DNA of 39,816 bases from Alistipes sp. (lineage in GTDB: Bacteria > Bacteroidota > Bacteroidia > Bacteroidales > Rikenellaceae): contig JAGBCY010000017.1 of the NCBI GenBank assembly GCA_017937765.1, forward strand, positions 1-39,816, read 5' to 3'. A model generated the notes under the pieces. That model ran no database searches, was not told where the DNA came from, and saw only the letters and a list, made by a program, of their open reading frames with translations. Position 1 is the stretch's first letter; each line of letters starts with the position of its first letter. The position numbers and the translations under genes are program-made. Below are positions 20,046 to 39,816 of the stretch, one piece after another.

Positions 20046-20152
20046 TGTCATAGTTTTTTTAACTATTTGTGTATTAATATCTTTTGCAAATATCGAATGA
20101 ACTATCACCCAATAGCTAAAATCTCTTCGGCGGCAAAAACACTCCGACGATA

Positions 20153-20160
20153 CAAATATA
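20153..20160 (-). promoter_or_regulatory. Possible -7 element for lipoprotein C
   Basis: The minus strand reads TATATTTG about 108 nt before the start. The nearest TTTG on that strand, at 20176-20173, is only 12 nt away, so support is weak. Confidence 0.3.
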
Positions 20161-20251
20161 TACATTTTTTTGCAAATCGTAGCATACCGATCGAGTTTTT
20201 TCCGACACCACCCACGCGCCCACCTACCCTCGAAAACACAAAGGTAGACAC

Positions 20252-20279
20252 AAAAAAAACGGCCCCCGAAGGAGCCGTT
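20252..20279 (-). terminator. Intrinsic terminator of lipoprotein D
   Basis: On the minus strand AACGGCTCC-TTC-GGGGGCCGTT forms a stem followed by a run of T, 21 nt after the D stop codon. Confidence 0.88.
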
Positions 20280-20299
20280 AGTTTACACGCTAAAGAGTA

Positions 20300-22147: not shown

Positions 22148-22319
22148 AGAATTAGATATTAAGGTTTTAAATATTTTGGTAATTAATTATCTCTCTTATC
22201 GTCTCTCGCAAGTCGTACAACACCACTCCGCGCAGCTACAAAACGCTCTACACGACACTCTGCTCTGGGGTAATAAAACAGAATGTCAACCACAAAAATA
22301 TATATTTTTTCTTAAAGTA

Positions 22320-22327
22320 CAAAGATA
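22320..22327 (-). promoter_or_regulatory. -7 element for lipoprotein D
   Basis: The minus strand reads TATCTTTG about 170 nt before the start codon. The -33 position does not read TTTG. Confidence 0.45.
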
Positions 22328-22377
22328 TAAAAGATTTTTTTACCTCACACGCAGGCTTCACTCCAACGGCACATAAA

Positions 22378-22409
22378 CTTCAGCCCGACGCTTATGCATC
22401 GGGCTGAAG
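22378..22409 (-). terminator. Terminator of lipoprotein E
   Basis: CTTCAGCCCGA (22378-22388) pairs perfectly with TCGGGCTGAAG (22399-22409) with a 10-nt loop. On the minus strand TTTATG follows. Confidence 0.8.
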
Positions 22410-22491
22410 GGAGGTTATACACGGGCTGCTTGGCAGCCGCCGTACTTAGATGTAGACCTCGGGGATGACCCTCGGCCTTGTGCAGGTCGTC

Positions 22492-23733: not shown

Positions 23734-23736
23734 CTA
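23734..23736 (-). other. In-frame amber codon splitting lipoprotein E
   Basis: On the minus strand the context is CAG CTC TAG ATG GAC. The frame is open on both sides, and the paralogue D has an aromatic residue near this position, so a single base change from a sense codon explains it. TAG is used as a normal stop elsewhere in the window (for example rpmH and dtd), so general amber reassignment is not indicated. Confidence 0.85.
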
Positions 23737-24597
23737 GAGCTGGAGCATAAAGTTACCAGTAGAGAAGAGCTCGGCAGTAACCTTCACGGGCTCGAACGCT
23801 ACGGGCTCGTCACCACCAACGGTCATATTCTCAACCTCGCCGCTATATGTTGCGTGGTGGATGTTACCCTCAGCATCGTAGAGCGTGATATCGAAATCGT
23901 AGACATCGCCCTCGACTGCCACCTTAACAACAATATCCTCAGCCATAATCTCATCGGCCGTAAATACTGCGCAGAAGTCGATGATTACGTTCTCGGCCTC
24001 AAGGCTATACTCGCCAGCCTGAAGAGTCATATCGCCCTCCTGGCCAACAAGCCAAACCACGAAGTCGGCACCATTCTCACCCTCAACACCCGAGAATGCG
24101 ATGGGGAAGTCGTAGGGATAGAGCGTGAAGCCAACATCCTCGGCACTCATACGCTCGGCCGACACCAACTCATACTCGAAGGTTGTGGGCTGGGGCTCGG
24201 GCTTCTCCTCCTTAGCTGCCTGCTTAACAGCAACCTCGGCAACCTCGGTAGCGTACTTAACAACGATCTTCGTATTGCGAGCCTCGCCCTCGTTTGCAGC
24301 AACCGTGAAGTTGCACTTCTCGAGGTCGGTAGCCGTAATCGTTACCCAATCAGCCTCGCACGTAACCTCAACCTCGGGCTCAGGCACGGGCGATGTACGC
24401 GACACCTCGACCCACTCGACGGTGTAGGTAATCTCACCCTGACCGCCCTCAGCCTCGAACTCCATAATGATGTCCGACGTGAGCGACAGCACAGCAACCT
24501 TCTCAACAGGCTTATCCGTCTCCGATTCGTTAGTTTCACAAGCTGCAAATACCAGTGGCAATGCAAGCAATAGATAGAATAAATTTCTCAGTCTCAT
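23734..24597 (-). CDS. Lipoprotein E, N-terminal part with BACON domain
   Basis: This 287-aa frame has the shared signal MRLRNLFYLLLALPLVFAAC (Cys20), followed by ETNESETD. The BACON domain is at about 35-135 (LSLTSDIIMEFEAEGGQGEI, EADWVTI, VKQAAKEEKP). A module at about 145-265 with YHA-like strands follows (NIHHATYSGEVENMTVGGDEP), and then the first residues of a Z module (AELFSTGNFMLQL) before a TAG. The truncated product could still be exported and anchored. A well-formed promoter lies at 24696-24666. Whether the stop is a real mutation, an assembly error, or suppressed in the cell cannot be told here. Confidence 0.8.
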   Translation of the reverse strand: MRLRNLFYLLLALPLVFAACETNESETDKPVEKVAVLSLTSDIIMEFEAEGGQGEITYTVEWVEVSRTSPVPEPEVEVTCEADWVTITATDLEKCNFTVAANEGEARNTKIVVKYATEVAEVAVKQAAKEEKPEPQPTTFEYELVSAERMSAEDVGFTLYPYDFPIAFSGVEGENGADFVVWLVGQEGDMTLQAGEYSLEAENVIIDFCAVFTADEIMAEDIVVKVAVEGDVYDFDITLYDAEGNIHHATYSGEVENMTVGGDEPVAFEPVKVTAELFSTGNFMLQL

Positions 24598-24665
24598 AGC
24601 TTTAGTGATTTAAATTAGTATATTAGTTGATAAATTTCGACAGCACCACAAAACATTTCCTATCA

Positions 24666-24696
24666 CAAAGCTAAGAAATATATTCCTATTATCAAA
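24666..24696 (-). promoter_or_regulatory. Promoter of lipoprotein E
   Basis: Minus-strand TTTG at 24696-24693, a 19-nt spacer, then TAGCTTTG at 24673-24666. The leader is about 65 nt. The -7 sequence is identical to that of lipoprotein I. Confidence 0.82.
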
Positions 24697-24783
24697 ATAT
24701 TTTAGACTATTTTTTGACAAAAAAATCAGCAACACACCTTATCACTGAGGTCATATATTCATCTTAGCCACAGCTACGAACAC

Positions 24784-24815
24784 AAAAAAAGGAGCCACCC
24801 GCGCGGGGCAGCTCC
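24784..24815 (-). terminator. Intrinsic terminator of lipoprotein F
   Basis: On the minus strand a GGAGCTGCCC / GGGTGGCTCC stem is followed by seven T, 31 nt beyond the F stop. Confidence 0.85.
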
Positions 24816-24845
24816 CAGTCTCGTTACCTCGAAAGAGGCTATCTG

Positions 24846-26975
24846 CTACCAGTCAGCACCGTAGATAGGCATCTCGCCTACCCAAGTGAGCGAGTGTGTC
24901 TCGTTCGAGCCGTTGTTGGGAATCCAAGAGGCATTGATGGTAGTCACGCCCGAGGCATCGGTTGCAACGGTAGCCGACACGCTTGCCATTGCACAACCAT
25001 TGGCGTTGTCCCACAAGAGGTGGTAGCACCAGCTGGCATTCATCGAGCCATCTTCGCTGCTATACTCGCCATCGGGGAGAACGTTGCTTGAAGGGATGCC
25101 GTTGAAGCTGAGCTTGAATGCTTTGTAGTCATCATTCTCGTCGAGTGCTGTCTTGAAGATGATATCGCCACAGCCCGAATCGCTGTCGATCCACGACCAT
25201 ACGAACTCGGCAATCTCATAGTGGTTAGCGTTGGTCTCGCCACCGTCGCCACCTTCGTTACCACCCTCGTTGCCAGCCTCGCGGATAGTACCCGTGATTG
25301 CGTTACCGGCATCGTCTACACAGTTGAGAGTAAGCGTGTGCTTGCCATTAGCATCAACATCAATCGTGATTGTACCATCAACAAATGGTGCGCAATTGCC
25401 CGTATTGAAGTCCCAATACCACGAGCCGTAGTACTCCTCCCAATATGAGTCGAAGTAGCCCTTGAAGAATGTGTAAGCCGACTCGTCGTTCGAGCAAGCA
25501 TACTCGCCAGCGATGTTAGTACCTGCTGCCAAGAGGTCGAACATCAAATATGCACCGGTGTAGTTCTCAGCATCCTCGTAAACGTAAACCACATAGTTAT
25601 TTGTGCCGTTATAGTAGTAGTCGCCATAATCCTCCACGACGAATGTTGCACCCTCGATATTGAGGCTTAAGTCGCCGTCAATCGTAGAGTAGATCTCATC
25701 CTCGTCATCGCCACCGTCGTCACCCGAGCTTGCGTCGGTAACGGCAACAACGCCCTCAAACACAACCTTCGTGAGCTCCTCGCCAAACCATACCTCGGCA
25801 ACAACGCCGTTGGCGTCAACCGTGATCGTAGCGTTCGTAGGCTTGCGAACCTCGACAAAGTCCCAGCCATACTCATCCAAGACGTAGTACTCCGAGTAGT
25901 ATGCGCTGATTGTACCGGGAGCATAGCTATCGGTAGCATCCCAAGTGTAGGTGCCATAAGGAATTGCCACGCCATTTGCCTTATCTACGAGCTCGGTATA
26001 GAGGTCGAAACGATAGTACTTACCATTGGCTACCTCCCAACCATCAGCATCGAGACCATCGTCCGAGAGGAAGAAGTAGAAATTATCGGCCGTGCCGGGT
26101 GTGTACTGATCGCCGTAGTATGTTGCATAGGCATACTGAACCTTGATCTCGTTACCAACGACGGGGGCCTCGGTAGCGTTATCAACAACGCACTCACCAG
26201 CGTAAGTCACCGTGTGCTCAACACCCTGAATGGTAACCGTGAGGGTCATACCAGTCTCGGTAACCGTGAGCTTACCAGCCTCATACGCAGCAGCTGCGGG
26301 CTCGACATCCTCGTTTGTTACCAAGTAGTACGACAAGCTCTTCGAGAATGCACCAGCCTCGGTATTCTCGCTGAGCTCGTACTCACCAACGGGGATTGCC
26401 ATAGTCTCGCTATACTCGCCCGTGTAGCCCGCAACGTAGAGATCCACGGTGTAGTAGGTGGCGTTAGGCAGGAAGATGTTCTCCGGATCGAAGCCCGTAT
26501 CGGTGAGGGCAAAGAAGTAGTTATCAACGCCATCGCCATCCTCGTCGCCATAATACTCGCCATAGAGCTCCTTAGCCTCGAAAGCTACGGGCTCGGGCTC
26601 AGGCTCAGCCTGCTTAGCAGCCTGCATAACGGCAACCTCGAACGACTCGGTGTCGTACTTAACCGTAATCTTCGCATCGCGAGCCTCCTCAGCGTCGTTA
26701 GCCGCAACCGTGAAGGTCACCTTATCGCCAGCCGTGAGATCCATAACCCACTCAGCTGCACACTCTGCCGTGAGCGTCACACCCTCCTTGGCGTTCTCAA
26801 GGGTATAGCTGATCTCACCTGCGCCACCCTCGGCCGAGAAGTCAAGGATAGCATCCGACGTAAGCGTCAAGACTGGATCCTTCACAACAGGCGTAGGATC
26901 GGTCTCATCCTCGGTACAAGCTGCAAATGCCAACGGCAATGCGAGCAACAGATAGAATAAGTTTCTAAGTTTCAT
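24846..26975 (-). CDS. BACON-domain lipoprotein F (X-X-Y-Z modules)
   Basis: This 709-aa protein has the shared signal MKLRNLFYLLLALPLAFAAC (Cys20), followed by TEDETD. The BACON domain is at about 33-120 (LTLTSDAILDFSAEGGAGEI, CAAEWVMD, VMQAAKQAEP). Two X modules follow at about 133-270 and 273-415; both have a YYGD element, NYFF or NFYFFLSD, a YYxxDLY strand, an IPxGxY strand and V-F/Y-G closure. Then comes Y at about 435-575 (DYGDYYYNGTNNYVVYVY, FFKGYFDSYWEEYYGSWYWD, DDAGNAITGTI), a Gly-rich linker, and Z at about 590-709. It is the only member with all module types and the X module doubled. The promoter at 27073-27043 is well formed. Confidence 0.83.
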   Translation of the reverse strand: MKLRNLFYLLLALPLAFAACTEDETDPTPVVKDPVLTLTSDAILDFSAEGGAGEISYTLENAKEGVTLTAECAAEWVMDLTAGDKVTFTVAANDAEEARDAKITVKYDTESFEVAVMQAAKQAEPEPEPVAFEAKELYGEYYGDEDGDGVDNYFFALTDTGFDPENIFLPNATYYTVDLYVAGYTGEYSETMAIPVGEYELSENTEAGAFSKSLSYYLVTNEDVEPAAAAYEAGKLTVTETGMTLTVTIQGVEHTVTYAGECVVDNATEAPVVGNEIKVQYAYATYYGDQYTPGTADNFYFFLSDDGLDADGWEVANGKYYRFDLYTELVDKANGVAIPYGTYTWDATDSYAPGTISAYYSEYYVLDEYGWDFVEVRKPTNATITVDANGVVAEVWFGEELTKVVFEGVVAVTDASSGDDGGDDEDEIYSTIDGDLSLNIEGATFVVEDYGDYYYNGTNNYVVYVYEDAENYTGAYLMFDLLAAGTNIAGEYACSNDESAYTFFKGYFDSYWEEYYGSWYWDFNTGNCAPFVDGTITIDVDANGKHTLTLNCVDDAGNAITGTIREAGNEGGNEGGDGGETNANHYEIAEFVWSWIDSDSGCGDIIFKTALDENDDYKAFKLSFNGIPSSNVLPDGEYSSEDGSMNASWCYHLLWDNANGCAMASVSATVATDASGVTTINASWIPNNGSNETHSLTWVGEMPIYGADW

Positions 26976-27042
26976 AATGTTAACAATTATTTGTGAATAT
27001 ATTAAATGAATTGCGTAGTTGCATAATCATTCCATTAATATA

Positions 27043-27073
27043 CAAAATTAGATATTTTTTTCTGAAATACAAA
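27043..27073 (-). promoter_or_regulatory. Promoter of lipoprotein F
   Basis: Minus-strand TTTG at 27073-27070, a 19-nt spacer, then TAATTTTG at 27050-27043. The leader is about 65 nt. Confidence 0.78.
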
Positions 27074-27122
27074 ATATATCACCCCCTTTTAAATCAAAAA
27101 AATTAGGTAGCCTAAAATAAAT

Positions 27123-27150
27123 ATTCGGGACCACAACCGCAGTCCCGAAT
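27123..27150 (-). terminator. Terminator of lipoprotein G
   Basis: ATTCGGGAC (27123-27131) pairs perfectly with GTCCCGAAT (27142-27150). ATATTTATTTTA follows on the minus strand, 21 nt after the G stop. Confidence 0.8.
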
Positions 27151-27171
27151 ACCGAATCGCGCCGTCCGCTG

Positions 27172-28257
27172 CTAAATCTCTGTCATCGGACCGCTCCAGC
27201 TGCCCGAGATAGTATTACCCTTATCGTCGAGCACCGCAAACTCCACGCTTGCCGTGCCATCGGCTCGACACTCAACCTCGAGCTCGCCGCCTACGAAGGG
27301 TGCCATCGTCACGCCGTCATCCTTATAATACCACGAGCCATTCATATAGCCCGAGTCGCCCTCCACGGCGATATATCCGCGAAGGAAACTATACTCCGAC
27401 ATCTCATCGCCACATTCAAAGACCCCGCTAAAGAGCGCGTCGTCCGTGGCCGAGGTCATAACGTCGAACTGAATGAAGTCGCCGACATACTCGTTAGGCC
27501 AGATGGCAAAGGTATAGTTATTGATGCCCGTAGCGTAGTAATCACCATAGGCACAATAGATTAGCATATGGTCGCTGAGGTCCACTTCGTAGTCCTCCGT
27601 AAGTGTCGAGAGCTCGCCCTCCGGAATCTCGACATCGCCACCGTCATCATCTCCGCCACCGACATCCTCGCCCGTAGCCGATCGCTTATCCGCAACATCG
27701 GCCTTGCCGTCGAACGTCACCGTATGCTCAACGCCTGCGATGGTCACCTTGAGCACCGCCTGCGTTGCTGTAACCACAAGCTCACCAGCCTCAAACTGAT
27801 GCTCCTCAACAAACTGGCCGTCAGCATCCGAGCGCGTAAACTTCGAGTAGGCCACCGAGAAGGTTCCATTCGTAAAGCTATTCTCCATATCGAGGCGATA
27901 GGTGCCCTCGGGCAGCGGCAACCTGTCGACCTCCTCGCCACCATAGTAGTCGCCATACAGGTCGAGCGTATAGTAGACAGCCTCTGGCAGTGCGTAGCCC
28001 GCATCACTGAAGCCCTTATCCGAGAAGTGGATGAAGTAGTTACCTACGCCCGGACTATAATAGTCGCCATAATACTCTCCGCCGAAATAGGCCGCCTCGA
28101 GCACAACACCATCCGTAGGCTCATCAGGAGTGTCGGGCTCTTCGGGTTGCTCGGGGGTATCGGGCTTATTATTTGGCACAACATCCTTATCCCCTCTCTC
28201 ACACGCGACAGCCACGAAAGCCGCCGCCATCATCACAAATAAACTATTAATCTTCAT
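27172..28257 (-). CDS. X-Y module lipoprotein G (no BACON domain)
   Basis: From the ATG at 28257 this is a 361-aa lipoprotein with signal MKINSLFVMMAAAFVAVAC (Cys19), followed by ERGDKD. The frame opens 27 nt earlier, but that start would precede the signal. A Pro/Glu/Asp-rich spacer (about 28-55) leads straight into module X (YFGGEYYGDYYSPGVGNYFI, YYTLDLYGDYYGGEE, VEHTVTFDGKAD), then a Gly/Asp linker and module Y (CAYGDYYATGINNYTFAIW, FLRGYIAVEGDSGYMNGSWY, LDDKGNTISGSW). It is the minimal X-Y form and shows these modules stand alone without BACON. It starts 45 nt after the glycosyltransferase and lacks an obvious promoter, so the two are probably co-transcribed. Confidence 0.83.
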   Translation of the reverse strand: MKINSLFVMMAAAFVAVACERGDKDVVPNNKPDTPEQPEEPDTPDEPTDGVVLEAAYFGGEYYGDYYSPGVGNYFIHFSDKGFSDAGYALPEAVYYTLDLYGDYYGGEEVDRLPLPEGTYRLDMENSFTNGTFSVAYSKFTRSDADGQFVEEHQFEAGELVVTATQAVLKVTIAGVEHTVTFDGKADVADKRSATGEDVGGGDDDGGDVEIPEGELSTLTEDYEVDLSDHMLIYCAYGDYYATGINNYTFAIWPNEYVGDFIQFDVMTSATDDALFSGVFECGDEMSEYSFLRGYIAVEGDSGYMNGSWYYKDDGVTMAPFVGGELEVECRADGTASVEFAVLDDKGNTISGSWSGPMTEI

Positions 28258-28302
28258 ATGCTTACACCATTTTATTAGCTCCATATTTTCATCCTACGCT
28301 CG

Positions 28303-29205
28303 TTAGCTACCGCTCTCCGCGGCATATATTCCGCGCGATATCTCACGGCGCATCAACAACAGATAGCGCGACTGCTCGGGACGGTGCACAAGGCATAGTA
28401 CAAGCGTGGCACACCACTTAACAACCTCGCCCACGTACAGCCCCACAAGCCTACCGCGCAGCTCGGCACGACGTCGCTGGCTCACGCCCGTATTGAAACT
28501 CAGGCGCGTGAAGTACTCCTTAGTAAGTTTAGCCTCAGGGATTATGTGATACATCACGGCACGCGGCACGTAATAGAGGACAATACCCACGCTGGCCATA
28601 CGCTCGAACAGATCGCTCTCCTCGCCACCGATAAGCCTCCTCCCCGTGCGGCCGAGCGACGTATCGAACAGGCCCACACGGTCGAGGACCTCGCGACGAA
28701 TGGCCATATTTCCACCCCCGGGGATTCTACCCTTCGGAAAGAGTCTCACCCTCGGGCCGAAGTCCATAGGATTGGCGATGGGCTGCTCCGCGTAGCGCGA
28801 CATCCAGCGCGGTCGCCCCGCGGGGTACTCGGCGATGATGCGGCCACCTGCCGCCATAGCCTCCTTGCGACTCTCGAAGAGCTCGACGTATGCTGCCAAG
28901 AAATCCTCCACGATACGTTCGTCGTCGTCGATAAAGGCGACAATCGCGCCACACGATGCTCGGATACCGGCATTACGCGCAGCCGACAACCCCTGCTCAG
29001 GCTCGAACACATAGCGGAAGTTCTGCTCCGCGTGATCGCGCACGAAAGCCTCGACACGCTCACGCGTAGCATCCTTCGAGTTGTTATCCACCACGACACA
29101 CTCCCACCTCCGCGCCTCGAGGCTCTGCGCCGCCACCGACTCCAAGGCAAGCATCAGCTCCGCGGCACGGTTATAGGTAGCTATGACCAACGAAATTTCA
29201 ATCAT
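28303..29205 (-). CDS. Family 2 glycosyltransferase
   Basis: This 300-aa GT-A enzyme runs from the ATG at 29205. A further ATG at 29220 lies upstream of a TACCTTTG element that itself sits between the two, so it is not used. The N terminus is MIEISLVIATYNRAAELMLA. The nucleotide-binding DNNSKDATRE motif follows, then SAARNAGI and the metal-binding IDDDERI at about residue 99. An acceptor-side GGEESDLFERM comes later, and a hydrophobic stretch (VVKWCATLVLCLVH) near the C terminus may associate with the membrane. It transfers a sugar from a nucleotide donor to an unknown acceptor. Its position inside a lipoprotein island, upstream of and close to lipoprotein G, suggests but does not prove a link to modifying those proteins or surface glycans. 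Confidence 0.9.
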   Translation of the reverse strand: MIEISLVIATYNRAAELMLALESVAAQSLEARRWECVVVDNNSKDATRERVEAFVRDHAEQNFRYVFEPEQGLSAARNAGIRASCGAIVAFIDDDERIVEDFLAAYVELFESRKEAMAAGGRIIAEYPAGRPRWMSRYAEQPIANPMDFGPRVRLFPKGRIPGGGNMAIRREVLDRVGLFDTSLGRTGRRLIGGEESDLFERMASVGIVLYYVPRAVMYHIIPEAKLTKEYFTRLSFNTGVSQRRRAELRGRLVGLYVGEVVKWCATLVLCLVHRPEQSRYLLLMRREISRGIYAAESGS

Positions 29206-29209
29206 AGAG

Positions 29210-29217
29210 CAAAGGTA
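29210..29217 (-). promoter_or_regulatory. -7 element directly before the glycosyltransferase start
   Basis: The minus strand reads TACCTTTG and ends 4 nt before the ATG at 29205, the same geometry as the response regulator at 3443-3455. A leaderless transcript is expected. Confidence 0.6.
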
Positions 29218-29290
29218 CATATTTTTTCAGATATTTACTCTCTTTTGCGAAATTTTACGAGCGACAAGGAGGTGCCATATCAAACAGCGC

Positions 29291-29318
29291 GGGCCACCCG
29301 ACAAATACCGGGAGGCCC
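29291..29318 (-). terminator. Terminator of lipoprotein H
   Basis: GGGCCACCCG (29291-29300) pairs with CGGGAGGCCC (29309-29318) with one mismatch and an 8-nt loop, just after the H stop on the minus strand. Confidence 0.72.
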
Positions 29319-29348
29319 ACTGCAATATTATTACGTAAGGTCTGCGGC

Positions 29349-30752
29349 TTACTCCATCGCAACACCGTCGAGTGCGATAGCGAAGCTGAGGTAGCCGCTC
29401 ATAGTGCTGGTCATACCCACCAACGTGCGACCATCCGCCGATACGCCTACCATAATGATACCCTCCTGGATATAGTTGGTGAGGTCCATACCGTGCTTCT
29501 CCTTGAGCCACTCAACGAGGGTGTACGATGTCTCGCGGTCAACAGCCGTCTCGATGACGAATGCCGTAGTACCGTAACCGTAGGGAACGTCGTTAAGGAA
29601 GGCGATGCCGTCGTCGGTCATAGCAGTAACCGAGCCCACGCTGAACGAGGGGAACCACATCATCTCCTGGGTCTGGAGGTCGAAGGCAGCAGCAGGCTCG
29701 AGACCATCAGCGAAGTTTGTACCCTTGCCGAATACGTAGCGACCCGAGGGTGAGAGAAGCGTAGTACCCACGCCACCGAATGCCTCGGTAGGAGCGCGAT
29801 TCTCGTCAACCTCCAAGTGGATATACTCCCACTCGGCATACTCGTCAGCCCACATAATACCGAACATACCGAGGCCCGACTGCTCGAGGCCGATGATACG
29901 GTGGTCGGGAGCTACGGCAGTAGTCTGTGTAGCAGCACGATACTGCTGGTAGAGGTCATCCGACTGGAGGACTGTCACGCGATCGTTAACGATATCGTAA
30001 GCGAAGGGCACAACTATACCGAAACGCTCGGTGTAGTAGGTGTTATCCACGAAGTCGTAGTACCAACCCACTGCAAACTCGCCATCGGGCGTTACGCCTG
30101 TAAGTGCGCTACAATAGAGGTTACCGGGCAGGTCGCCGAGCTCCACGTCGAAGTACTCGCCATCCTTATAATAGATAGCCGTACCGCCATCATCAGCACC
30201 ACGGAAGCGCGAACCTACGGCAAGACCGTTATCCGCTACGTCGTAGAACTCCATATTCTGAATCTCGGTGAGACGGTCGTTCTGAAGGTCGATGATGATT
30301 GTGTTCTTGTCGAAGCCACCGACAGCCCAACGGCCATTGTTCGACAGCGCGCTCACGGGAGCAACCGAGTACCACTCACGATACTGGGGAGCCTCGAGTG
30401 CAGGAGTTGTAACGGTCTGAACTGCAGCCTCAGAGCTAAGATACTGAGTCTCGTCGGCCGAGATAGCCTTAACCGACACGATGTAATCGGTAGAGTAGTC
30501 GAGCTCGGCAAAGCGATATACCGTATCCTCGGTACGCTCGGCCTCGCCACCGTTGAGCGACACTTCGTAGCAGATAGCGAAATCGACGCTCTCCCACGTT
30601 ACAATGATTGTGTTCTGCTGCACATTGCAGTTTACAACGGGCGTAGCAAGGCGGTTCTCCTTATTCTCACCGCCCTCCTCTGTGCCATTCTCGCAGCCCA
30701 CGAATGCCACGAGGGCAACAGCTGCAACAAGTAGTCTAAAAATGTTTTTCAT
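29349..30752 (-). CDS. Lipoprotein H: fibronectin-III-like domain plus predicted beta-propeller
   Basis: This 467-aa lipoprotein has the signal MKNIFRLLVAAVALVAFVGC (Cys20), followed by ENGTEEGGE. A fibronectin-III-like domain covers about 33-115 (TPVVNCNVQQNTIIVTWESV, VSLNGGEAER, YIVSVKAIS). The rest is a series of strands of the type NGRWAVGGF, DNGLAVGSRF, DGEFAVGWYYD, SGRYVFGKG, DDGIAFL and DGRTLVGMT, spaced by about 40-60 residues, which suggests a repeated-blade propeller. It has neither BACON nor X/Y/Z modules and so is foreign to the family around it. Promoter and terminator are its own. Function is unknown. Confidence 0.8.
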   Translation of the reverse strand: MKNIFRLLVAAVALVAFVGCENGTEEGGENKENRLATPVVNCNVQQNTIIVTWESVDFAICYEVSLNGGEAERTEDTVYRFAELDYSTDYIVSVKAISADETQYLSSEAAVQTVTTPALEAPQYREWYSVAPVSALSNNGRWAVGGFDKNTIIIDLQNDRLTEIQNMEFYDVADNGLAVGSRFRGADDGGTAIYYKDGEYFDVELGDLPGNLYCSALTGVTPDGEFAVGWYYDFVDNTYYTERFGIVVPFAYDIVNDRVTVLQSDDLYQQYRAATQTTAVAPDHRIIGLEQSGLGMFGIMWADEYAEWEYIHLEVDENRAPTEAFGGVGTTLLSPSGRYVFGKGTNFADGLEPAAAFDLQTQEMMWFPSFSVGSVTAMTDDGIAFLNDVPYGYGTTAFVIETAVDRETSYTLVEWLKEKHGMDLTNYIQEGIIMVGVSADGRTLVGMTSTMSGYLSFAIALDGVAME

Positions 30753-30849
30753 AATATTTGAATGTTTTGTCCTTAATTCCTCGCTATCGAGTTACCCCCA
30801 TCAAGTTTATAGCCTATAACGGAGAAACACCCTAATAATTAGAGTGGTG

Positions 30850-30880
30850 CAAAGGTAGTAAAAAAAATATATCTTGCAAA
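30850..30880 (-). promoter_or_regulatory. Promoter of lipoprotein H
   Basis: Minus-strand TTTG at 30880-30877, a 19-nt spacer, then TACCTTTG at 30857-30850, with a leader of about 95 nt. Confidence 0.85.
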
Positions 30881-30958
30881 TCGCCGCTCGCCATTCTCAA
30901 AATTATCACTATTTTTCTGCATATATATTCATTAATTCCGCTCACTATGCAAAGATGA

Positions 30959-30984
30959 GGGCCACCTCCGAATAGAGGCGGCCC
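30959..30984 (-). terminator. Terminator of lipoprotein I
   Basis: GGGCCACCTC (30959-30968) pairs with GAGGCGGCCC (30975-30984), one mismatch, 6-nt loop, 37 nt beyond the I stop on the minus strand. Confidence 0.72.
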
Positions 30985-31020
30985 AAACTATTTAGCACTT
31001 TCAGACACTAATCGTAATTC

Positions 31021-33273
31021 CTAAGCAACTACGTTTGACGAAGTACCCGAATACTTAACGCCGTCGATTGTCATCGAGACGGTAACGTAATACGAGTAAT
31101 CAATCGTTATGGTGCCCTCTGCCATTGTTGCAGCCTCACCATTCACCGTGATATCCGTAGCATAGAACACGCCATCGGTGTCGTTAATATAGTAAGTACC
31201 AGCCGACAAGCCATACTTACCACCGAGCTGCGCCGTAACCGTGTTACCTGCCGCGTCGGTCATAGTCAAGGTCTCAGTGCCTGTGTTAAGCGATGCGGTG
31301 AATGTCCAGGGATCGAACTTCGAGGGCTGCTCGGGATCGGGATCAGGCGTAGGATCGGGATCGGGTGTTGGGTCGGGATCTGGAGTTGGATCTGGATCGG
31401 GCGTAGGCTCTGTGCCCTGCTCGCCGATAGTACCAACATACTTGAACGTCATCTCAGCGTCGTTAACCATAGCCTTGATATTGATAGTGTAGGTGTTACC
31501 CTCAACCGCAACCTCGCAAGTACCGGTCATCACTTGATTGTTCGCATACTGGATGCCATCAACGCGGAGCGACTTATTCACAAATGAGAAGTTACCGCTG
31601 TTGATATACGATGGAGAGCTTACCCAGCTATAAGTGCGAGCATTGATCGCCGTGGCGTTAGAGTCCGAGCTATCCAATACGAGCTTGAGATAGTTGTCAC
31701 CGCTCTCGTCCGTGAGGATAAACTGATAGTAGTATGAGAGAGCCGTACCCTCCGACATTGAGGTAAATGTAATAACATTAGGGGTAGCAGCACCACCGTT
31801 GTCGTTGAGCTTACCCTTATACTCGATCATATAGACAACACCATCGCGACCATTGAGCGTGAGCTGGATATCATACTCCTCGCCCTCGGCCGAGACAACA
31901 GCCTTACCCGCGTCAACAGGTGTAAGCACGCCATCGAGGCTGAACGAGCGGGTTGTGAAGTACTTAGTGTCGTCGGTATAGCCGAACATCGTTGTCGACA
32001 CCCAGTTATACTCACCCTCCTCGAGCGACTCCTTTGCAGCGAACTCTGCGGGGAAGTGTACGTCGATAGAGAAGCCCTCGCCAACAACCATATACTTATT
32101 ACCGTAGTTTGACGCATTACCCCAGAGCCACTTGTCGGCCGTGTGCGTTGCCTCGAACGCGCCTGGAGTCTGGCTGCCACCATCATCTACCGAGAGGTCA
32201 CCTTCAAATAATACACGGTGCTTTGAACCATCCTCAAACTCGATGGTGGCTTCAACCATACCATCACTGATGATGAGGTTAGCATCCTTGTACATCTTAA
32301 AACCTCCCTCAGGAACTCCGTTAACCATCTTATAGAGGAACGAGAGCTCATCTAAGATGGTATTGGGAGTAGCATTTGATCCGAGGCTATAAATGCCATT
32401 GGGAAGCACTCCATTACCCTTAGACGAGGGTATGATTGCGAAAGCGTAATATGTACCGCCGTCAACACCCCAGCCGCTATCGCCCCAGCCTTTGTCACCG
32501 AGTTCAACAACATAGAAGTCAACACCCTCCTCATTCATATAGTCCGTCATAATCTGTGTTGCGACAAACTCCACATCGTACTCCTTACCAACAGGCTCAC
32601 CACCCTTGGCAACCTGCTTAACTGTAACCTCCAACGACTCAGACAGATGTGTTACCGTGATGGTTGCCTCGCGAGCCTCCTCTGTCTCGTTGGCCAACAC
32701 TCTAAACGAGGTTTTTGTCTCGGTGCAGCCATCAATCTTCACCCAGTCAGCCGAGCACTTTGCCTCGGTCTCTACGGGCGACGTGCGCGAGGGCTCGATC
32801 CACTCGATGGTGTAGGTAATCTCGCCATTACCACCCTCAGCCGCAAACTCCATCACCTCGTCCGAAGTGAGCGTAAACACGAGCTCCTTATCCTCAGCCG
32901 TTCCCGCCATCGTAAACATCTTGACCTCAGCCTTAACGACCGTCTTAGAGTTCATCGCAGCAGCAACAACCATATAGTCGGTATCGGCCTCAAGATCCGT
33001 AGCTGTAACCTCCACCGTGGTGTTAGCAGCGATCTCGGTACCCACCGAGAATACCTCGGTTGCGGTGGGCGTTGTTGTCGACGCCTCAACCACGAGCCAA
33101 GCGACCTTTTCGGCATCGGTGGTAGTCACCGTGAACGAGAGAGAGTCTTCGGTCGTTGTGCCCGCCACAAGATTAATAGTGGGGTTCTTCACCTCGTCTA
33201 CCTTCGTATCCTCGCACGCAGCAAAGAACAAAGGAAGAGTCAAAAGTGCATAGAATAGAGTTTTGATTCTCAT
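31021..33273 (-). CDS. BACON-domain lipoprotein I (largest member)
   Basis: This 750-aa protein has the signal MRIKTLFYALLTLPLFFAAC (Cys20), followed by EDTKVDE. Domain order is: a fibronectin-III-like domain at about 30-125 (TTEDSLSFTVTTTDAEKVAW, DTDYMVVAAAMNSKTV); BACON at about 130-228 (FTLTSDEVMEFAAEGGNGEI, CSADWVKI, VKQVAKGG); a divergent X module (VVELGDKGWGDSGWG, YYAFAIIPSS, LPNGIYSLG, KHRVLFEGDLSV); two Z-like modules at about 375-505 and 508-640; a TPDPDP linker of four repeats; and a last beta-rich domain of about 100 residues. The leader sequence differs from the D/E/F group but keeps the L-F-Y-x-L-L-x-L-P core. It has its own promoter and terminator. Confidence 0.82.
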   Translation of the reverse strand: MRIKTLFYALLTLPLFFAACEDTKVDEVKNPTINLVAGTTTEDSLSFTVTTTDAEKVAWLVVEASTTTPTATEVFSVGTEIAANTTVEVTATDLEADTDYMVVAAAMNSKTVVKAEVKMFTMAGTAEDKELVFTLTSDEVMEFAAEGGNGEITYTIEWIEPSRTSPVETEAKCSADWVKIDGCTETKTSFRVLANETEEAREATITVTHLSESLEVTVKQVAKGGEPVGKEYDVEFVATQIMTDYMNEEGVDFYVVELGDKGWGDSGWGVDGGTYYAFAIIPSSKGNGVLPNGIYSLGSNATPNTILDELSFLYKMVNGVPEGGFKMYKDANLIISDGMVEATIEFEDGSKHRVLFEGDLSVDDGGSQTPGAFEATHTADKWLWGNASNYGNKYMVVGEGFSIDVHFPAEFAAKESLEEGEYNWVSTTMFGYTDDTKYFTTRSFSLDGVLTPVDAGKAVVSAEGEEYDIQLTLNGRDGVVYMIEYKGKLNDNGGAATPNVITFTSMSEGTALSYYYQFILTDESGDNYLKLVLDSSDSNATAINARTYSWVSSPSYINSGNFSFVNKSLRVDGIQYANNQVMTGTCEVAVEGNTYTINIKAMVNDAEMTFKYVGTIGEQGTEPTPDPDPTPDPDPTPDPDPTPDPDPEQPSKFDPWTFTASLNTGTETLTMTDAAGNTVTAQLGGKYGLSAGTYYINDTDGVFYATDITVNGEAATMAEGTITIDYSYYVTVSMTIDGVKYSGTSSNVVA
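31334..31405 (-). repeat. Four 18-bp in-frame repeats encoding a TPDPDP linker
   Basis: Units at 31334-31351, 31352-31369, 31370-31387 and 31388-31405 differ mostly at synonymous positions. Copy number could change without shifting the frame and would lengthen or shorten the linker. Confidence 0.85.
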
Positions 33274-34798: not shown

Positions 34799-35914
34799 AT
34801 GAAATTCAGAATAATACCCTCGATACCCGGCTACCGAACCTTAGATAGATACATCTTGGGGAAGTTCCTGCGTACCTACATCTTCGGCCTCGTGATGATG
34901 GTCATCATCCTTGTGGTGTTCGACTATGTGGAGAAGGTCGACGACTTCACGGAGCTCAAGGCCCCGTGGAAGGAGATTATCTTCGACTACTACCTAAACT
35001 TCATCCCCCACTTCATCAACCAGTTTAGTGCGCTGTTCACCTTCATCTCGGTAATCTTCTTCACCTCGAAGATGGCTATGCAGACCGAGATTGTGGCGAT
35101 ACTCTCGGGAGGCGTTAGCTTCCGCCGTCTGATGTGGCCCTATACCATCGGTGCCACGATCATCGCCACGCTGAGCCTCGCGCTGAGCCTCTGGGTGATA
35201 CCCGAGGGACAGAAGGATAGCGTTGCGTTCCAGAGCAAGTATCTCAAAAAGAATCAGCTCATCGTCTACGACCAACACGTCTACCGCCAGATCGAGCCCG
35301 GCACGTTTGCCTACATCCGCGGCTACTCGCCGAGTGCCGAGCGCGTGCCCTTCTTCGCCCTTGAGCGTTACGAGGGCTCGGAGATGGTCGAGACGCTGAA
35401 CGCCGCAAGTGCCTCGTTCGACGAGGAGTCGGGCCGCTGGACAGCACCGCGCTACGTGATCTACTCGCGCACCGAGGATGGCTCGCTTGGCTATAAGCAG
35501 TACCGCAACCTCGACACGCTTATCAACCTCGATGCTCGCGAGCTTGTCGATGCTAAGGGTTTGGTTAAGACACAGAACATCGAGGAGCTCAACGACTTCC
35601 TCACGCAGCAGCGCAGGAAGGGTTCGGACAACGTCTTTATCGTCGAGGTAGAGCGTCACACGCGCTTCTCATACCCCTTCTCGACCTTCATCCTTACGAT
35701 CATCGGCGTATCGCTCGCCTCGCGTAAGGTACGTGGAGGTATGGGTATGCACATCGGTCTCGGCATAGCCCTCTGCTTCGGATATATTATGCTCGGCCGC
35801 GTCTTCGAGCAGATTGCCATCGGAGGCTCGTTAGCCCCGTGGCTCGGCGTATGGCTGCCGAACATAATCTTTGCCGTGATAGCAATCTTTGTTTACCGTA
35901 AAGCACCAAAATAG
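34799..35914 (+). CDS. LptF/LptG-family inner-membrane permease
   Basis: This 371-aa protein belongs to the YjgP/YjgQ permease family that, with LptB2 and LptC, extracts lipopolysaccharide from the inner membrane. It begins IPGYRTLDRYILGKFLRTY, followed by a transmembrane helix (IFGLVMMVIILVVFDYVEKV). Two further helices come before residue 135, then a beta-rich periplasmic domain at about 140-285, and three C-terminal helices (FSTFILTIIGVSLASRKVRGG, IGLGIALCFGYIMLGRVF, and LGVWLPNIIFAVIAIFVYR). It is a little longer than typical single members. Whether it is LptF or LptG cannot be decided here. The mqnE-PASTA gene starts 2 nt after its stop, indicating a shared transcript. Confidence 0.9.
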   Translation: MKFRIIPSIPGYRTLDRYILGKFLRTYIFGLVMMVIILVVFDYVEKVDDFTELKAPWKEIIFDYYLNFIPHFINQFSALFTFISVIFFTSKMAMQTEIVAILSGGVSFRRLMWPYTIGATIIATLSLALSLWVIPEGQKDSVAFQSKYLKKNQLIVYDQHVYRQIEPGTFAYIRGYSPSAERVPFFALERYEGSEMVETLNAASASFDEESGRWTAPRYVIYSRTEDGSLGYKQYRNLDTLINLDARELVDAKGLVKTQNIEELNDFLTQQRRKGSDNVFIVEVERHTRFSYPFSTFILTIIGVSLASRKVRGGMGMHIGLGIALCFGYIMLGRVFEQIAIGGSLAPWLGVWLPNIIFAVIAIFVYRKAPK

Positions 35915-35916
35915 CG

Positions 35917-38361
35917 ATGCGTAAGATTAATGATATTGCCGATGCCGTTCGTCGCAACGAGCGCATCTCCACGACCGACGCCATAACCCTATGGCGCGAG
36001 GCTCCGCTATGGCTCCTCGGCGAGCTTGCCACAACACGCAAGCGCAGGGCCAGTGGCGAGAATGTCTACTACAACCACAACGTACACCTCGAGCCTACGA
36101 ACATCTGTCTGTTCAACTGCGAGTTCTGTTCGTTCCGTCGCCGTGAGGGCGACCCCGATGCGTGGTATATGACGCTCGACCAGATCGAGGCACGCGCCGC
36201 CGAGCTCAAGGGCTCGGGCATCACCGAGGTACACATCGTTGGAGGCGTACACCCAAACCACGACTTGGACACCTACTGCGCGATGATTCGCCGCGTGAAG
36301 GCACAGCTGCCCACCGTCACGGTCAAGGCCTATACGGCAGTCGAGATATTCTATATGATTCGCCGCGAGGGCATCTCCGTAGTCGAGGGACTACGCCGCC
36401 TAAAGGAGGCGGGTATGGAGTGTATCCCGGGTGGTGGTGCCGAGATCTTCGACGCCAAGCTACGCGCTAAGATATGCCCCGAGAAGTGTAGCTCGGAGGA
36501 GTGGCTCGCCGTGCACCGTGCGGCCCACAATATGGGCATCGCCACGAACTGCACGATGCTCTACGGCCACATCGAGACCATCGAGCAGCGCGTCGACCAC
36601 CTCGACCGTCTGCGTAGCCTTCAGGACGAGGCCCCGGGTTTCGACGCCTTCATTCCGCTCAAGTATCACAGTCACGGTAATAGGCTCGGCAAGGCGGGTG
36701 AGTGCAGCACCGAGGAGGATCTGCGCACCATAGCCATCAGCCGCATCTTCCTCGACAACATACCCCACATTAAGGCCTACTGGGTATCCTACGGCAAGGC
36801 GACGACCGAGATGGCTCTATCGTTTGGTGCCGACGATATCGACGGCACGATTGGCAACACCACGAAGATCTACTCGATGGCCGGCGGCGTGGAGCGTCCG
36901 TCGATGAGTGTCGAGGAGCTCGAGGCTATGGTTACGGCGGCGGGATTCCGTCCCGTCGAGCGCGACTCGCACTACAACGCCGTGGCACGCCACGACTATA
37001 TCGCCGAGCCCACGCCAGAGCCCGATGTTTTAGTGGAGGTAGAGAAGATGGATGAGGTTATCGAGGCCGAGCCCGCAGGCGACGAGCACGTCGAGCCTCT
37101 CGCCGAGCCCGTGATGATTGAAGAGCCCGTGGAGGAGAGACAAGAAGAGAAGAAGCCCGAAAGATCAGAAGAGGAGGGAGGCGTTACGAGACCTAAGATA
37201 GACCTCGGCGGCGAAACTCATAAGAGACACGAAGATATGAATAACAAACAGATAGACGAGACTACAAAACGACACGGTGCAAAGGCAGAGCCTAAGCCCG
37301 AGCCCAAGCCCGCGAAAAAGGGTGACGCAAAGGGTGCGGCAAGCGTAAAGAGCGCAGCAAAGTCAAAGAGCGCGACAAAGGGTGGCGACGGCAAGCCTCA
37401 GGGATTCTTCCGCAGGGTCTATCGCCGTATGCCCATTCTGTCGAATATGGTGCTTATCGGCCTCTTCGGCATCGTGCTCCTCGCTGGCCTCTACTTCGGC
37501 CTTAACTGGGGCACGCGCCACGGCAATGTTATCGAGGTGCCTAACCTCTTGGGTATGACCATCGAGGAGGCACGCCACGAGGCTCGCAACAAGGATCTAA
37601 ACATCATCGTGCGCGACTCGATATTCGATGTCAACCTCCCCGGCGGTATGGTCGTCGACCAGCTGCCACGCACCTCGTCGGTGAGGGATGTTACCGTGAA
37701 GCCGGGACGTAAGATCTACGTCACGATCAACGCCTTCAACCGCCGTATGGTGGATGTTCCCTACGTCGCCAAGCAGACGCTGCGTCAGGCTCTCAACCAG
37801 TTGGAGCGCGCAGGTCTCACCGTCGAGGAGATCATCTACGAGGCCGACCTCACCTCGACCGACTATGTCCTTGCGCAGACCATCGAGGGCCACGACGTGC
37901 GCCCCACGTCGAGCATTAAGGCGGCTGTGGGTACGGGTGTGACGCTGAGGGTGAGCTACCGCCGCGAGGAGCAGTACACCGTAGCTCCGCGCCTTGTGGG
38001 CCTCACGCTTCAGCAGGCCAAGAGCAGCCTCTGGGATAGCGGTCTGAATATCGGCAACATAGTATACGACGAGAGTGTCGAGGATATCATCGCACGCCGC
38101 ACGGCGAGGGTATATATGCAGTCGAAGCCCTTAGGCTCGGGTGTACGCCGCGGTAGCGAGGTGACGCTACACCTCACCTGCAACCAGCACCTCGTCGACT
38201 CGTTGGCCGTGATTGCCGATAGGGATGCTAAGGTCTACGAGGCACAACGACGCAAGGAGCAGGAGGCACGCCGCAAGGCCTTAGAGGATGGTGAGGAGTC
38301 GATCGAGGGTAGCGAGGATGGCGAGTACGAGGAGCTCGAGCTCGATGTCATCGGCGAATAG
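35917..38361 (+). CDS. mqnE: Aminofutalosine synthase fused in frame to a membrane PASTA-domain protein
   Basis: This continuous 814-aa frame has no internal stop. Residues 1-372 are a complete radical-SAM aminofutalosine synthase of the futalosine menaquinone pathway: Cys64, Cys68 and Cys71 (TNICLFNCEFCSF) bind the 4Fe-4S cluster, with EVHIVGGVHP, KAYTAVEI, IPGGGAEIFDAKLRAKICPEK, TMLYGHIET, and HSHGNRLGKAG after it. Residues 373-500 are a Glu/Pro- then Lys-rich linker. A transmembrane helix is at about 507-527. Three PASTA repeats follow at about 537-605 (VIEVPNLLGMTIEEA), 608-680 and 686-755, then a charged tail. PASTA repeats bind muropeptides or beta-lactams in other bacteria; no kinase domain is present. 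The linker at 37140-37260 is A-rich with AGA codons, unlike both flanks. An internal ATG at 37237 with an A-rich start could be a second initiation site giving a free PASTA protein. rluD follows, the normal neighbour of the PASTA gene. Confidence 0.9.
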   Translation: MRKINDIADAVRRNERISTTDAITLWREAPLWLLGELATTRKRRASGENVYYNHNVHLEPTNICLFNCEFCSFRRREGDPDAWYMTLDQIEARAAELKGSGITEVHIVGGVHPNHDLDTYCAMIRRVKAQLPTVTVKAYTAVEIFYMIRREGISVVEGLRRLKEAGMECIPGGGAEIFDAKLRAKICPEKCSSEEWLAVHRAAHNMGIATNCTMLYGHIETIEQRVDHLDRLRSLQDEAPGFDAFIPLKYHSHGNRLGKAGECSTEEDLRTIAISRIFLDNIPHIKAYWVSYGKATTEMALSFGADDIDGTIGNTTKIYSMAGGVERPSMSVEELEAMVTAAGFRPVERDSHYNAVARHDYIAEPTPEPDVLVEVEKMDEVIEAEPAGDEHVEPLAEPVMIEEPVEERQEEKKPERSEEEGGVTRPKIDLGGETHKRHEDMNNKQIDETTKRHGAKAEPKPEPKPAKKGDAKGAASVKSAAKSKSATKGGDGKPQGFFRRVYRRMPILSNMVLIGLFGIVLLAGLYFGLNWGTRHGNVIEVPNLLGMTIEEARHEARNKDLNIIVRDSIFDVNLPGGMVVDQLPRTSSVRDVTVKPGRKIYVTINAFNRRMVDVPYVAKQTLRQALNQLERAGLTVEEIIYEADLTSTDYVLAQTIEGHDVRPTSSIKAAVGTGVTLRVSYRREEQYTVAPRLVGLTLQQAKSSLWDSGLNIGNIVYDESVEDIIARRTARVYMQSKPLGSGVRRGSEVTLHLTCNQHLVDSLAVIADRDAKVYEAQRRKEQEARRKALEDGEESIEGSEDGEYEELELDVIGE
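37237..38361 (+). other. Possible internal initiation of the PASTA protein
   Basis: The ATG at 37237 (residue 441 of the fused frame) begins MNNKQIDETTKRHGAKAEPK with A-rich codons typical of a true start region. The DNA before it (37140-37236) has the composition of an old intergenic or leader region. A 374-aa membrane PASTA protein would result. Confidence 0.4.
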
Positions 38362-38365
38362 ACAG

Positions 38366-38399
38366 CCACGAAAAGTAATGGCGGAGGAGGCACAGCAGC
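38366..38399 (+). other. Small hairpin between the PASTA gene and rluD
   Basis: GGAGGC (38384-38389) pairs with GCCTCC (38396-38401) around ACAGCA. There is no T tract. It may be a weak attenuator or may have no role. Confidence 0.3.
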
Positions 38400-38460
38400 C
38401 TCCACATAGGCCAAAATCCCAGACAGAGAGATATAAACGAAGATAGGCAACAGAACGGAA

Positions 38461-39561
38461 GTGATTGATAAAGAGAAATATATAGACGATGAGCTTCTCG
38501 AGCTCGAGCCCGAAGGCGTTGACTGCGAGGGTGATGGCGAGGGTGACGAGATGTTCGAGCACTTTGCGGTGACGGTGGATAAGGGGCAGTCGATGATGCG
38601 CCTCGATAAGTTCCTCACCATACGCCTCGAGCACACATCGCGTAACCGCATACAGGCCGCCGCCGATGGACATAATATCCTTGTCAACGGCAAGCCCCAG
38701 AAGTCGAGCTATAAGGTGAAGCCGCTGGACCAGATATCCATCGTGCTGCCCTATCCGCGACGTAAGGAGGAGATCGTGCCCGAGAATATTCCGCTGAACA
38801 TCCTATACGAGGATGACGACATCATCGTCATCAACAAGGAGGCAGGTATGGTCGTTCATCCCGGTGTCGGCAACCATAGCGGCACGTTGGTGCACGCCCT
38901 GTCGTACCACCTGCAAAACCTGCCTATGTTCTCGGAGGGTAACGCGCGCGCGGGCCTCGTGCACCGCATCGACAAGGATACCTCGGGAATATTGGTCGTG
39001 GCGAAGAACGAGCGCGCCCACGCCTCGCTTGCCAAGCAGTTCTTCGACCACACGATCTACCGCCGCTATGTAGCACTCGTGTGGGGTAATATCGCCGAGG
39101 ATGAGGGTACGATCACGGGAAACATTGGCCGCAGCCCGAAGGATCGCTTGCAGATGTATGTCTTTGCCGATGGCTCGGATGGTAAGCACGCCGTGACACA
39201 CTTCAAGGTACTGCGCCGCTATGGCTACGTCACGCTCGTGGAGTGCCGTTTGGAGACGGGCCGCACCCACCAGATACGTGTACATATGTCGTGGCAGGGT
39301 CACCCGCTCTTCAATGACGAGCGTTACGGCGGCAACCGCATACTCAAGGGCACGACGTTTATGAAGTATAAGCAGTTTGTCGAGAACTGCTTTAAGCTCA
39401 TCCCGCGCCAGTCGCTCCACGCCCGCGCCTTAGGCTTCGACCACCCCACAACGGGAAAGTATGTGCAGTTCGAGTCGGATCTCCCCGAGGATTTCAAGGC
39501 CGTGCTCCAGAAATGGGACACCTATACCGAAGCCGTGGGTCTTGATATGGACGCGATCTAA
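38461..39561 (+). CDS. rluD: RluD-type 23S rRNA pseudouridine synthase
   Basis: This 366-aa protein runs from a GTG at 38461. The alternative ATG at 38551 would remove an acidic N-terminal segment of about 30 residues that I recall from other Bacteroidota members, so the GTG start is preferred but not certain. An S4 RNA-binding domain covers about 42-95 (MRLDKFLTIRLEHTSRNRIQ, VNGKPQKSSYKVKPLD). The catalytic domain follows with YEDDDIIVINKEAGMVVHPG, the motif GLVHRIDKDTSGILVVAKNE carrying the catalytic Asp, and RLETGRTHQIRVHMSWQGHP. It modifies uridines in helix 69 of 23S rRNA if it is a true RluD. It lies about 100 nt downstream of the PASTA frame. Confidence 0.93.
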   Translation: MIDKEKYIDDELLELEPEGVDCEGDGEGDEMFEHFAVTVDKGQSMMRLDKFLTIRLEHTSRNRIQAAADGHNILVNGKPQKSSYKVKPLDQISIVLPYPRRKEEIVPENIPLNILYEDDDIIVINKEAGMVVHPGVGNHSGTLVHALSYHLQNLPMFSEGNARAGLVHRIDKDTSGILVVAKNERAHASLAKQFFDHTIYRRYVALVWGNIAEDEGTITGNIGRSPKDRLQMYVFADGSDGKHAVTHFKVLRRYGYVTLVECRLETGRTHQIRVHMSWQGHPLFNDERYGGNRILKGTTFMKYKQFVENCFKLIPRQSLHARALGFDHPTTGKYVQFESDLPEDFKAVLQKWDTYTEAVGLDMDAI

Positions 39562-39637: not shown

Positions 39638-39816
39638 CACTTGATAAGGATAATGGTTTTACAACCCTAACAAGACGAGGGCACACACCTACCCCCTCAC
39701 TTGATAAGGATAATGGTTTTACAACCCTAACAAGACGAGGGCATACACCCACCCCCTCACTTGATAAGGATAATGGTTTTACAACCCTAACAAGACGAGG
39801 GCACACACCTACCCCC
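39638..39816. repeat. Exact 60-bp tandem repeat running off the window end
   Basis: Units start at 39638, 39698 and 39758 (the last one is cut by the window edge after 59 bases). The first about 43 bases, from CACTTGATAAGG to AAGACGAGG, are identical in all three; the last about 17 differ at two positions (39684/39744 C to T and 39690/39750 T to C). Each unit can form an imperfect CTTGATAAGG / CCCTAACAAG hairpin. The period is 20 codons, which keeps several frames open, but I see no sign of a gene. Confidence 0.9.

What the first reader, a model, noticed from the sequence alone, without database searches (positions are those of the whole stretch)
35917..38361. Menaquinone enzyme MqnE fused to a membrane PASTA protein
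A full radical-SAM aminofutalosine synthase (Cys64, Cys68, Cys71 and all downstream family blocks) continues without a stop through a Glu/Pro-rich linker into a transmembrane helix and three PASTA repeats. The topology is coherent: enzyme and linker in the cytoplasm, PASTA in the periplasm. The PASTA part keeps its usual downstream neighbour, rluD, so the fusion seems to have arisen by loss of the mqnE stop. I know of no described MqnE-PASTA protein. It would tether quinone precursor synthesis to the membrane and to a cell-wall-sensing domain, or it may simply be an accidental read-through fusion with internal initiation.
Basis: partly seen in the sequence, partly recalled or inferred. Interest (0 to 1): 0.78.

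Follow-up and report, generated by a model that had tools for sequence, protein, structure and literature searches.

The report
Quinone enzyme fused to wall protein
In a group of gut Alistipes bacteria an enzyme of vitamin K2 synthesis is encoded in one piece with a membrane protein that carries cell-wall-binding domains, while the old start signal of the wall protein appears to be kept inside the fused gene, so the gene probably makes both a long and a short protein.

Summary
Window 35917-38361 (+) is one 814-aa frame: a complete MqnE, a charged linker, one transmembrane helix and three PASTA repeats. It is not peculiar to this contig. Of 146 distinct mqnE loci read, 37 are fused. 36 of these lie in one 39-genome clade of the window's genus (Alistipes by named kin); the other 3 genomes there are split and nest inside it. 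The 37th is a distant, separate fusion. Upstream of the internal ATG the linkers hold 0 stops in 2073 codons, against about 89 in shuffles.

Every fused linker keeps an in-frame ATG (codon 441 here), in most species with an A/T-rich, weakly folded, synonymously GC3-poor context like a true start. I infer two products: an obligate MqnE-PASTA long form and a free 374-aa PASTA protein. mqnE beside PASTA is an older arrangement (19 of 29 other-family loci read, none fused), so the fusion probably arose by loss of a stop between operon neighbours.

The parts
35917..38361 (+). mqnE-PASTA fused gene, 814 aa (long form)
35917..36990 (+). MqnE (aminofutalosine synthase) domain, residues 1-358, Cys64/68/71
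   Evidence: TIGR03700 442.4 bits over cut-off; Pfam Radical_SAM and CofH_C; three Cys in 146 of 146 rows; solved relative 6xi9/6xig E 2.7e-103
36991..37236 (+). upstream half of linker, Glu/Pro/Val-rich, residues 359-440, present only in the long form
   Evidence: 0 stops in frame over 2073 codons in 37 species; net charge -7.5 per 100 aa over the 36 clade members
37207..37266 (+). probable internal translation initiation region (-30 to +30 around the internal ATG)
   Evidence: weak fold, A/T-rich, AT-ending codons; synonymous-shuffle control
37237..37239 (+). internal ATG, codon 441: inferred start of the free 374-aa PASTA protein (37237-38361)
   Evidence: only invariant column of residues 359-503 in 12 aligned fusions; an in-frame ATG 19-79 codons before the TM reference in 37 of 37
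37240..37446 (+). Lys/Arg-rich cytoplasmic tail, residues 442-510, shared by both forms
   Evidence: net charge +20.2 per 100 aa over the 36 clade members
37447..37503 (+). transmembrane helix, about residues 511-529
   Evidence: hydropathy maximum 2.45 at 511
37531..38181 (+). three PASTA repeats, about residues 539-755 (outer edge of the last repeat estimated by eye)
   Evidence: PF03793, 80.5 bits, three stretches, best 539-605
34799..35914 (+). LptF/LptG-family permease gene directly upstream (neighbour)
   Evidence: PF03739 224.6 bits; found upstream in 37 of 37 fused loci
38461..39561 (+). RluA-family (RluD-like) pseudouridine synthase gene downstream (neighbour)
   Evidence: TIGR00005 over cut-off; found downstream on the same strand in 37 of 37 fused loci

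Best explanation
A conserved two-product gene fusion. In an ancestor of a 39-genome Alistipes clade the stop codon of mqnE was lost, and the frame ran on into the next gene of the operon, a single-pass PASTA protein. Since then every MqnE made from this gene is expected to be a membrane-anchored MqnE-linker-TM-PASTA long form with the enzyme in the cytoplasm, because the only MqnE frame found has no stop before the PASTA end. At the same time the old PASTA start codon inside the frame is kept, so that ribosomes also start there and make a free PASTA protein without the enzyme. Shown from sequence: the open frame, its presence in 36 of 39 genomes of the clade, the absence of stops in a fast-changing linker, the kept ATG and its start-like context. 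Inferred: that both proteins exist, that the anchoring has a use (holding the enzyme near the membrane steps of menaquinone synthesis, or fixing its amount to the PASTA protein), and that this use is why stops are rejected.
For: Fusion conserved: 37 of 146 distinct loci; 36 in one clade with support 100/99, including the earliest branch L008/L009/L052. Linker translated: upstream half 0/82/189 stops by frame, shuffle mean 89 and minimum 59; 14 pairs, summed fourfold divergence 12.8, about 84 neutral stop gains expected, 0 seen; dN/dS of the upstream half 0.27, 0.17, 0.08 and 0.37 in four close pairs, three of which share three species. Internal start: an ATG in 37 of 37 where about 21 would be expected at the background Met rate; synonymous GC3 deviation -0.35 and -0.29 in the ten codons before it, against -0.23 at the true mqnE start; window score -0.301 against 0.008 (451 MqnE-domain ATGs), -0.001 (235 PASTA-domain ATGs) and -0.115 (33 other linker ATGs); fold -4.3 kcal/mol against -4.7 at the mqnE start and -15.2 at 711 other in-frame ATGs; weaker than synonymous shuffles at p<0.05 in 23 of 37, against 2 of 111 domain ATGs and 1 of 28 other linker ATGs, and positive in 14 of 14 lineages. 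Bacteroidetes starts depend on A-rich upstream sequence and low structure (PMC6847099, passages seen). Re-splitting: three genomes gained stops in the linker and still have a PASTA frame with its own ATG and a fused-type tail.
Against: No protein or ribosome data. L044 shows no start-like context (+0.04; fold -15.1, p 0.52); L010, L028 and L029 also give p of about 0.4-0.6, perhaps because my fixed rule picked one of several Mets; 14 of 37 species do not reach p<0.05, and in 8 of 37 another ATG scores as low on GC3. Linkers as a whole are GC3-poor (-0.139), so part of the dip is background. Species are related, so counts are not independent. One pair (L016/L019, 28 codons) has upstream-linker dN/dS 1.4, and three pairs could not be computed. 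The three split genomes show that the long form can be lost. No reason for the anchoring is known: MqnE substrates are soluble (recalled).
Confidence: 0.77

Rival explanations
1. Only the long fused protein is made; the internal ATG and its soft context are a relic of the former gene start.
For: A fused frame alone needs no internal start; a relic would sit in just this place. L044, L010, L028 and L029 lack the signal at the ATG chosen.
Against: Fourfold sites between deep branches are near saturation (identity 0.42-0.48 against 0.31-0.37 expected at saturation for L001 with L007, L008 and L052), so a synonymous relic should have faded; yet the dip is centred on the ATG in most lineages. The three split genomes still use a start of this kind.
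Confidence: 0.12
2. The long protein is a transient: it is cut in the linker, giving free MqnE and the PASTA protein, so that the fusion is neutral at the protein level.
For: The linker is long, low in hydrophobic residues (17.6 percent in its upstream half) and variable in length, as a protease-sensitive spacer would be.
Against: It does not explain why stops are kept out of the linker, nor why a start-like context is kept at the ATG. No cleavage motif was looked for.
Confidence: 0.08
3. Assembly or sequencing error, or accidental read-through in single isolates.
For: The window genome is a draft (33 contigs, 85.69 percent complete) and the named kin are MAGs of one sample series (RGIG).
Against: The same open frame is in 37 genomes of 180 in the genus, some over 95 percent complete in few contigs (G018: 8 contigs, 99 percent), found by two searches.
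Confidence: 0.02

Closest known systems
MqnE, aminodeoxyfutalosine synthase (TIGR03700; solved chain 6xi9/6xig)
   Same: Full-length radical-SAM and CofH_C domains, CxxxCxxC, over the curated cut-off
   Different: No stop after the enzyme; C-terminal linker, TM helix and PASTA repeats are added
Single-pass PASTA protein encoded after mqnE in the window's order
   Same: Same strand and order, TM helix, PASTA repeats, RluA-family gene after it in the window's genus
   Different: In the other loci read it is a gene of its own; here its frame is part of mqnE
PASTA Ser/Thr kinases of the PknB/Stk1 type (NF033483)
   Same: Cytoplasmic enzyme, one TM helix, outer PASTA repeats: the same overall layout
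   Different: The enzyme is MqnE, with no kinase domain; 78 bits against a cut-off of 450
Bacterial genes with an internal in-frame start giving long and short isoforms, e.g. AerR (PMC6199135, abstract and passages seen)
   Same: Two proteins from one frame through an internal start
   Different: AerR isoforms differ by 41 residues; here a whole enzyme is present in one form and absent from the other, and the internal start looks like the start of a formerly separate gene

Membership tests
MqnE (TIGR03700 equivalog) | Full-length match over the curated cut-off | tested here: met
   442.4 bits against 434.55, model 1-351 of 351
MqnE (TIGR03700 equivalog) | Radical-SAM cysteines | tested here: met
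   Cys64, 68, 71 in 146 of 146 rows
MqnE (TIGR03700 equivalog) | Other pathway genes present and no second MqnE | tested here: met
   Two PF02621 (MqnA/MqnD type) matches; the other strong CofH-family hit scores best as MqnC, 425.0 bits for the matched part, just under the 428.1 cut-off. MqnB was not looked for.
MqnE (TIGR03700 equivalog) | Enzyme activity | not testable with these tools
   sequence only
PASTA protein (PF03793) | PASTA repeats over the gathering score | tested here: met
   80.5 bits against 23.2, three stretches
PASTA protein (PF03793) | Binding of peptidoglycan or beta-lactam | not testable with these tools
   sequence only
PASTA Ser/Thr kinase (PknB/Stk1) | Protein kinase domain and family cut-off | tested here: not met
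   No kinase domain in Pfam; NF033483 78 bits against 450
Gene with internal in-frame start | Conserved internal start codon with initiation-like context | tested here: met
   weak or absent in L044, L010, L028, L029
Gene with internal in-frame start | Two protein products seen | not testable with these tools
   needs proteomics, ribosome profiling or immunoblot

The most novel reading that the evidence does not exclude
The long form is a receptor-enzyme: PASTA repeats sense peptidoglycan state outside the membrane and, through the linker, set the activity or place of the MqnE step, so that menaquinone supply follows wall synthesis. The internal start would set the ratio of enzyme-bearing to enzyme-free receptors, laid out like a PASTA kinase with the kinase replaced by a metabolic enzyme.
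Probability: 0.12. Interest if true: 0.8.

Novelty: new variant of a known kind. Interest (0 to 1): 0.5.

Why it matters
It ties a step of an essential respiratory cofactor pathway to a wall-binding membrane protein. It also gives a dated series (separate, recent fusion, long-standing fusion, re-split) in which one can watch two operon genes become one frame while the second start is apparently kept. It makes testable whether gene fusion in Bacteroidota can go through a two-product stage, and it warns that annotation as one 814-aa protein would miss a probable 374-aa product.

Tried and rejected
Assembly artefact: rejected, as the same frame is in 37 genomes. Recoded stop: not needed, the frame is open under table 11. 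The open_frame column of the protein search was not used, because it read through stops (for example G132 listed 713, but one search gives separate frames of 371 and 341); I read frames from DNA instead. An RNA element at the junction: no Rfam family reached threshold in 35500-38700. MqnE residues specific to the fusion: only four columns differ between fused and separate consensus at 85 percent, and 118 of 125 conserved columns are kept, so no active-site change was seen. Fusions in other families: 0 of 29 other-family loci read, two of which (L191, L192) were chosen for long listed frames. Presence of an internal Met alone is weak evidence, since about 21 of 37 linkers would have one by chance; the context carries the argument. 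Literature: 0 papers with MqnE and PASTA; two listed for aminofutalosine synthase plus fusion, listing only; one on gut quinone genes, passages seen, names fusions only for MenI; eight listed for MqnE, membrane, Bacteroid; 0 for PASTA domain-containing protein with Bacteroid.

Full report
What is there. The window frame 35917-38361 is one 814-codon gene on the + strand. It reads MqnE (residues 1-358), linker (359-510), one TM helix (about 511-529) and three PASTA repeats. MqnE meets the curated equivalog cut-off and resembles the solved aminodeoxyfutalosine synthase 6xi9/6xig over its length, E 2.7e-103. The draft genome (85.69 percent complete) has one MqnE; the other strong hit of that family scores best as MqnC, and two PF02621 proteins (MqnA/MqnD type) are present. 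The same pair of PF02621 proteins is found in 12 of 12 genomes tested, fused and split alike. The other pathway enzymes seen are not in long fused frames in the window genome: 367, 268 and 264 aa open frames.

Who has it. The family of the window genome was searched (268 genomes, 265 with a match). The match list was cut, and I read the DNA of 146 distinct mqnE loci from it, not of all 265 genomes. Of the 146, 37 have MqnE and PASTA in one frame, 104 in separate frames (103 of these on the same strand), and 5 have no PASTA hit, some of them at contig ends. In 37 of 37 fused loci an LptF/LptG-family gene lies upstream and an RluA-family gene downstream. A profile search of 180 genomes of the genus gives the same 37. 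Eleven of the fused genomes are named: Alistipes sp. MAGs from ruminant gut. The window's own genus is inferred from them.

How it evolved. On a tree of the MqnE domain (52 rows) 36 fused genomes and 3 separate ones form one clade (support 100/99). The three separate genomes (L049-L051) sit within it, beside fused L007, L047 and L048 (87/91), while the earliest branch (L008, L009, L052) is fused. Fewest changes: one fusion and one later split. A tree that keeps the 36 fused rows together without the three is rejected at p 0.014, though I named the group after seeing the tree. The split trio also look like former fusions: their PASTA frame is in frame with mqnE and its tail before the TM reference is 41-45 codons, like the fused median of 40 and unlike the median of 17 in the 103 separate loci. 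One more fusion, L145 (G133), lies far away with separate relatives next to it and a linker of only 5 codons before its ATG. The three changes on the 146-row tree fit this. Adjacency is older than fusion: in 29 loci from other families of the order, PASTA follows mqnE on the same strand in 19, and none is fused; two of the 29 were picked for long listed frames, and three of the ten without PASTA are short contig ends.

Is the linker translated? Its upstream half has 0 stops in frame over 2073 codons, but 82 and 189 in the other two frames and 89 on average in shuffles. It is acidic (-7.5 charges per 100 aa) and the half after the ATG is basic (+20.2); this order holds in 36 of 36 clade members. 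For 14 pairs of fused species, using fourfold sites of the MqnE domain as a clock, about 84 new stops would be expected in a neutral linker and none is seen. This figure is rough: it assumes equal rates, two of the pairs may share branches, and fused species were chosen beforehand; the one split event in the clade is the only loss I found. Upstream-half dN/dS is 0.08-0.37 in four close pairs (three of them within one trio), 1.4 in one short pair, and not computable in three.

Is the internal ATG a start? I picked, by position alone, the last Met at least 19 codons before the TM reference. All 37 have one; about 21 would by chance. In the alignment of the window with 11 named fusions, Met441 is the only invariant column between residues 359 and 503, though an aligner may pull Mets together. 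Around this ATG third positions shift to A/T beyond what the amino acids need: -0.35 and -0.29 in the ten codons before, about -0.26 in the nine after, near 0 to -0.1 farther out; the true mqnE start gives -0.23. The -30..+30 fold is -4.3 kcal/mol, as at mqnE starts (-4.7), and far from other in-frame ATGs (-15.2, n 711) or linker codons (-13.8). Against synonymous shuffles it is weaker at p<0.05 in 23 of 37, with 2 of 111 and 1 of 28 in the two controls. L044 fails clearly; L010, L028 and L029 also fail at the Met chosen. Such context is what Bacteroidetes ribosomes, which do not rely on Shine-Dalgarno pairing, respond to (PMC6847099, passages).

What it most likely does. A fused frame with no stop leaves no free MqnE unless it is cut; the start-like ATG gives a free PASTA protein as well. 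The most likely working picture is a membrane-anchored enzyme plus an enzyme-free copy of the anchor. Use of the anchor is inference: nearness to the membrane-bound late steps, fixed stoichiometry, or sensing. The last is the boldest reading and is kept as the novel case.

What it is called. MqnE: yes. PASTA protein: yes. PASTA kinase: no, only the same layout. Dual-product gene: by sequence yes, by protein untested. I found no paper on an MqnE-PASTA protein in the held library, which lacks most subscription journals.

Noticed in passing
39638-39816: The contig ends in a 60-bp tandem repeat, 3.0 copies, 96 percent matches. Contig C19 of the same genome begins with four copies of the same unit on the same strand, so C19 probably follows the window.
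   Followed up: partly
18606-33273, - strand: A run of ORFs with a BACON domain: 18606-20165, 20300-22147, 23734-24597, 24846-26975 and 31021-33273, with ORFs without a Pfam match and a glycosyltransferase among them.
   Followed up: no
12652-12758: Short-period tandem repeat (units of 6-30 bases, rich in CCAGAC/CCGAG) within the ORF 12289-13623.
   Followed up: no
genus-wide: Only 112 of 180 genomes of the genus have a full-length MqnE match; 21 of the 70 most complete ones have no MqnE-profile match at all. The futalosine pathway seems patchy in the genus.
   Followed up: no
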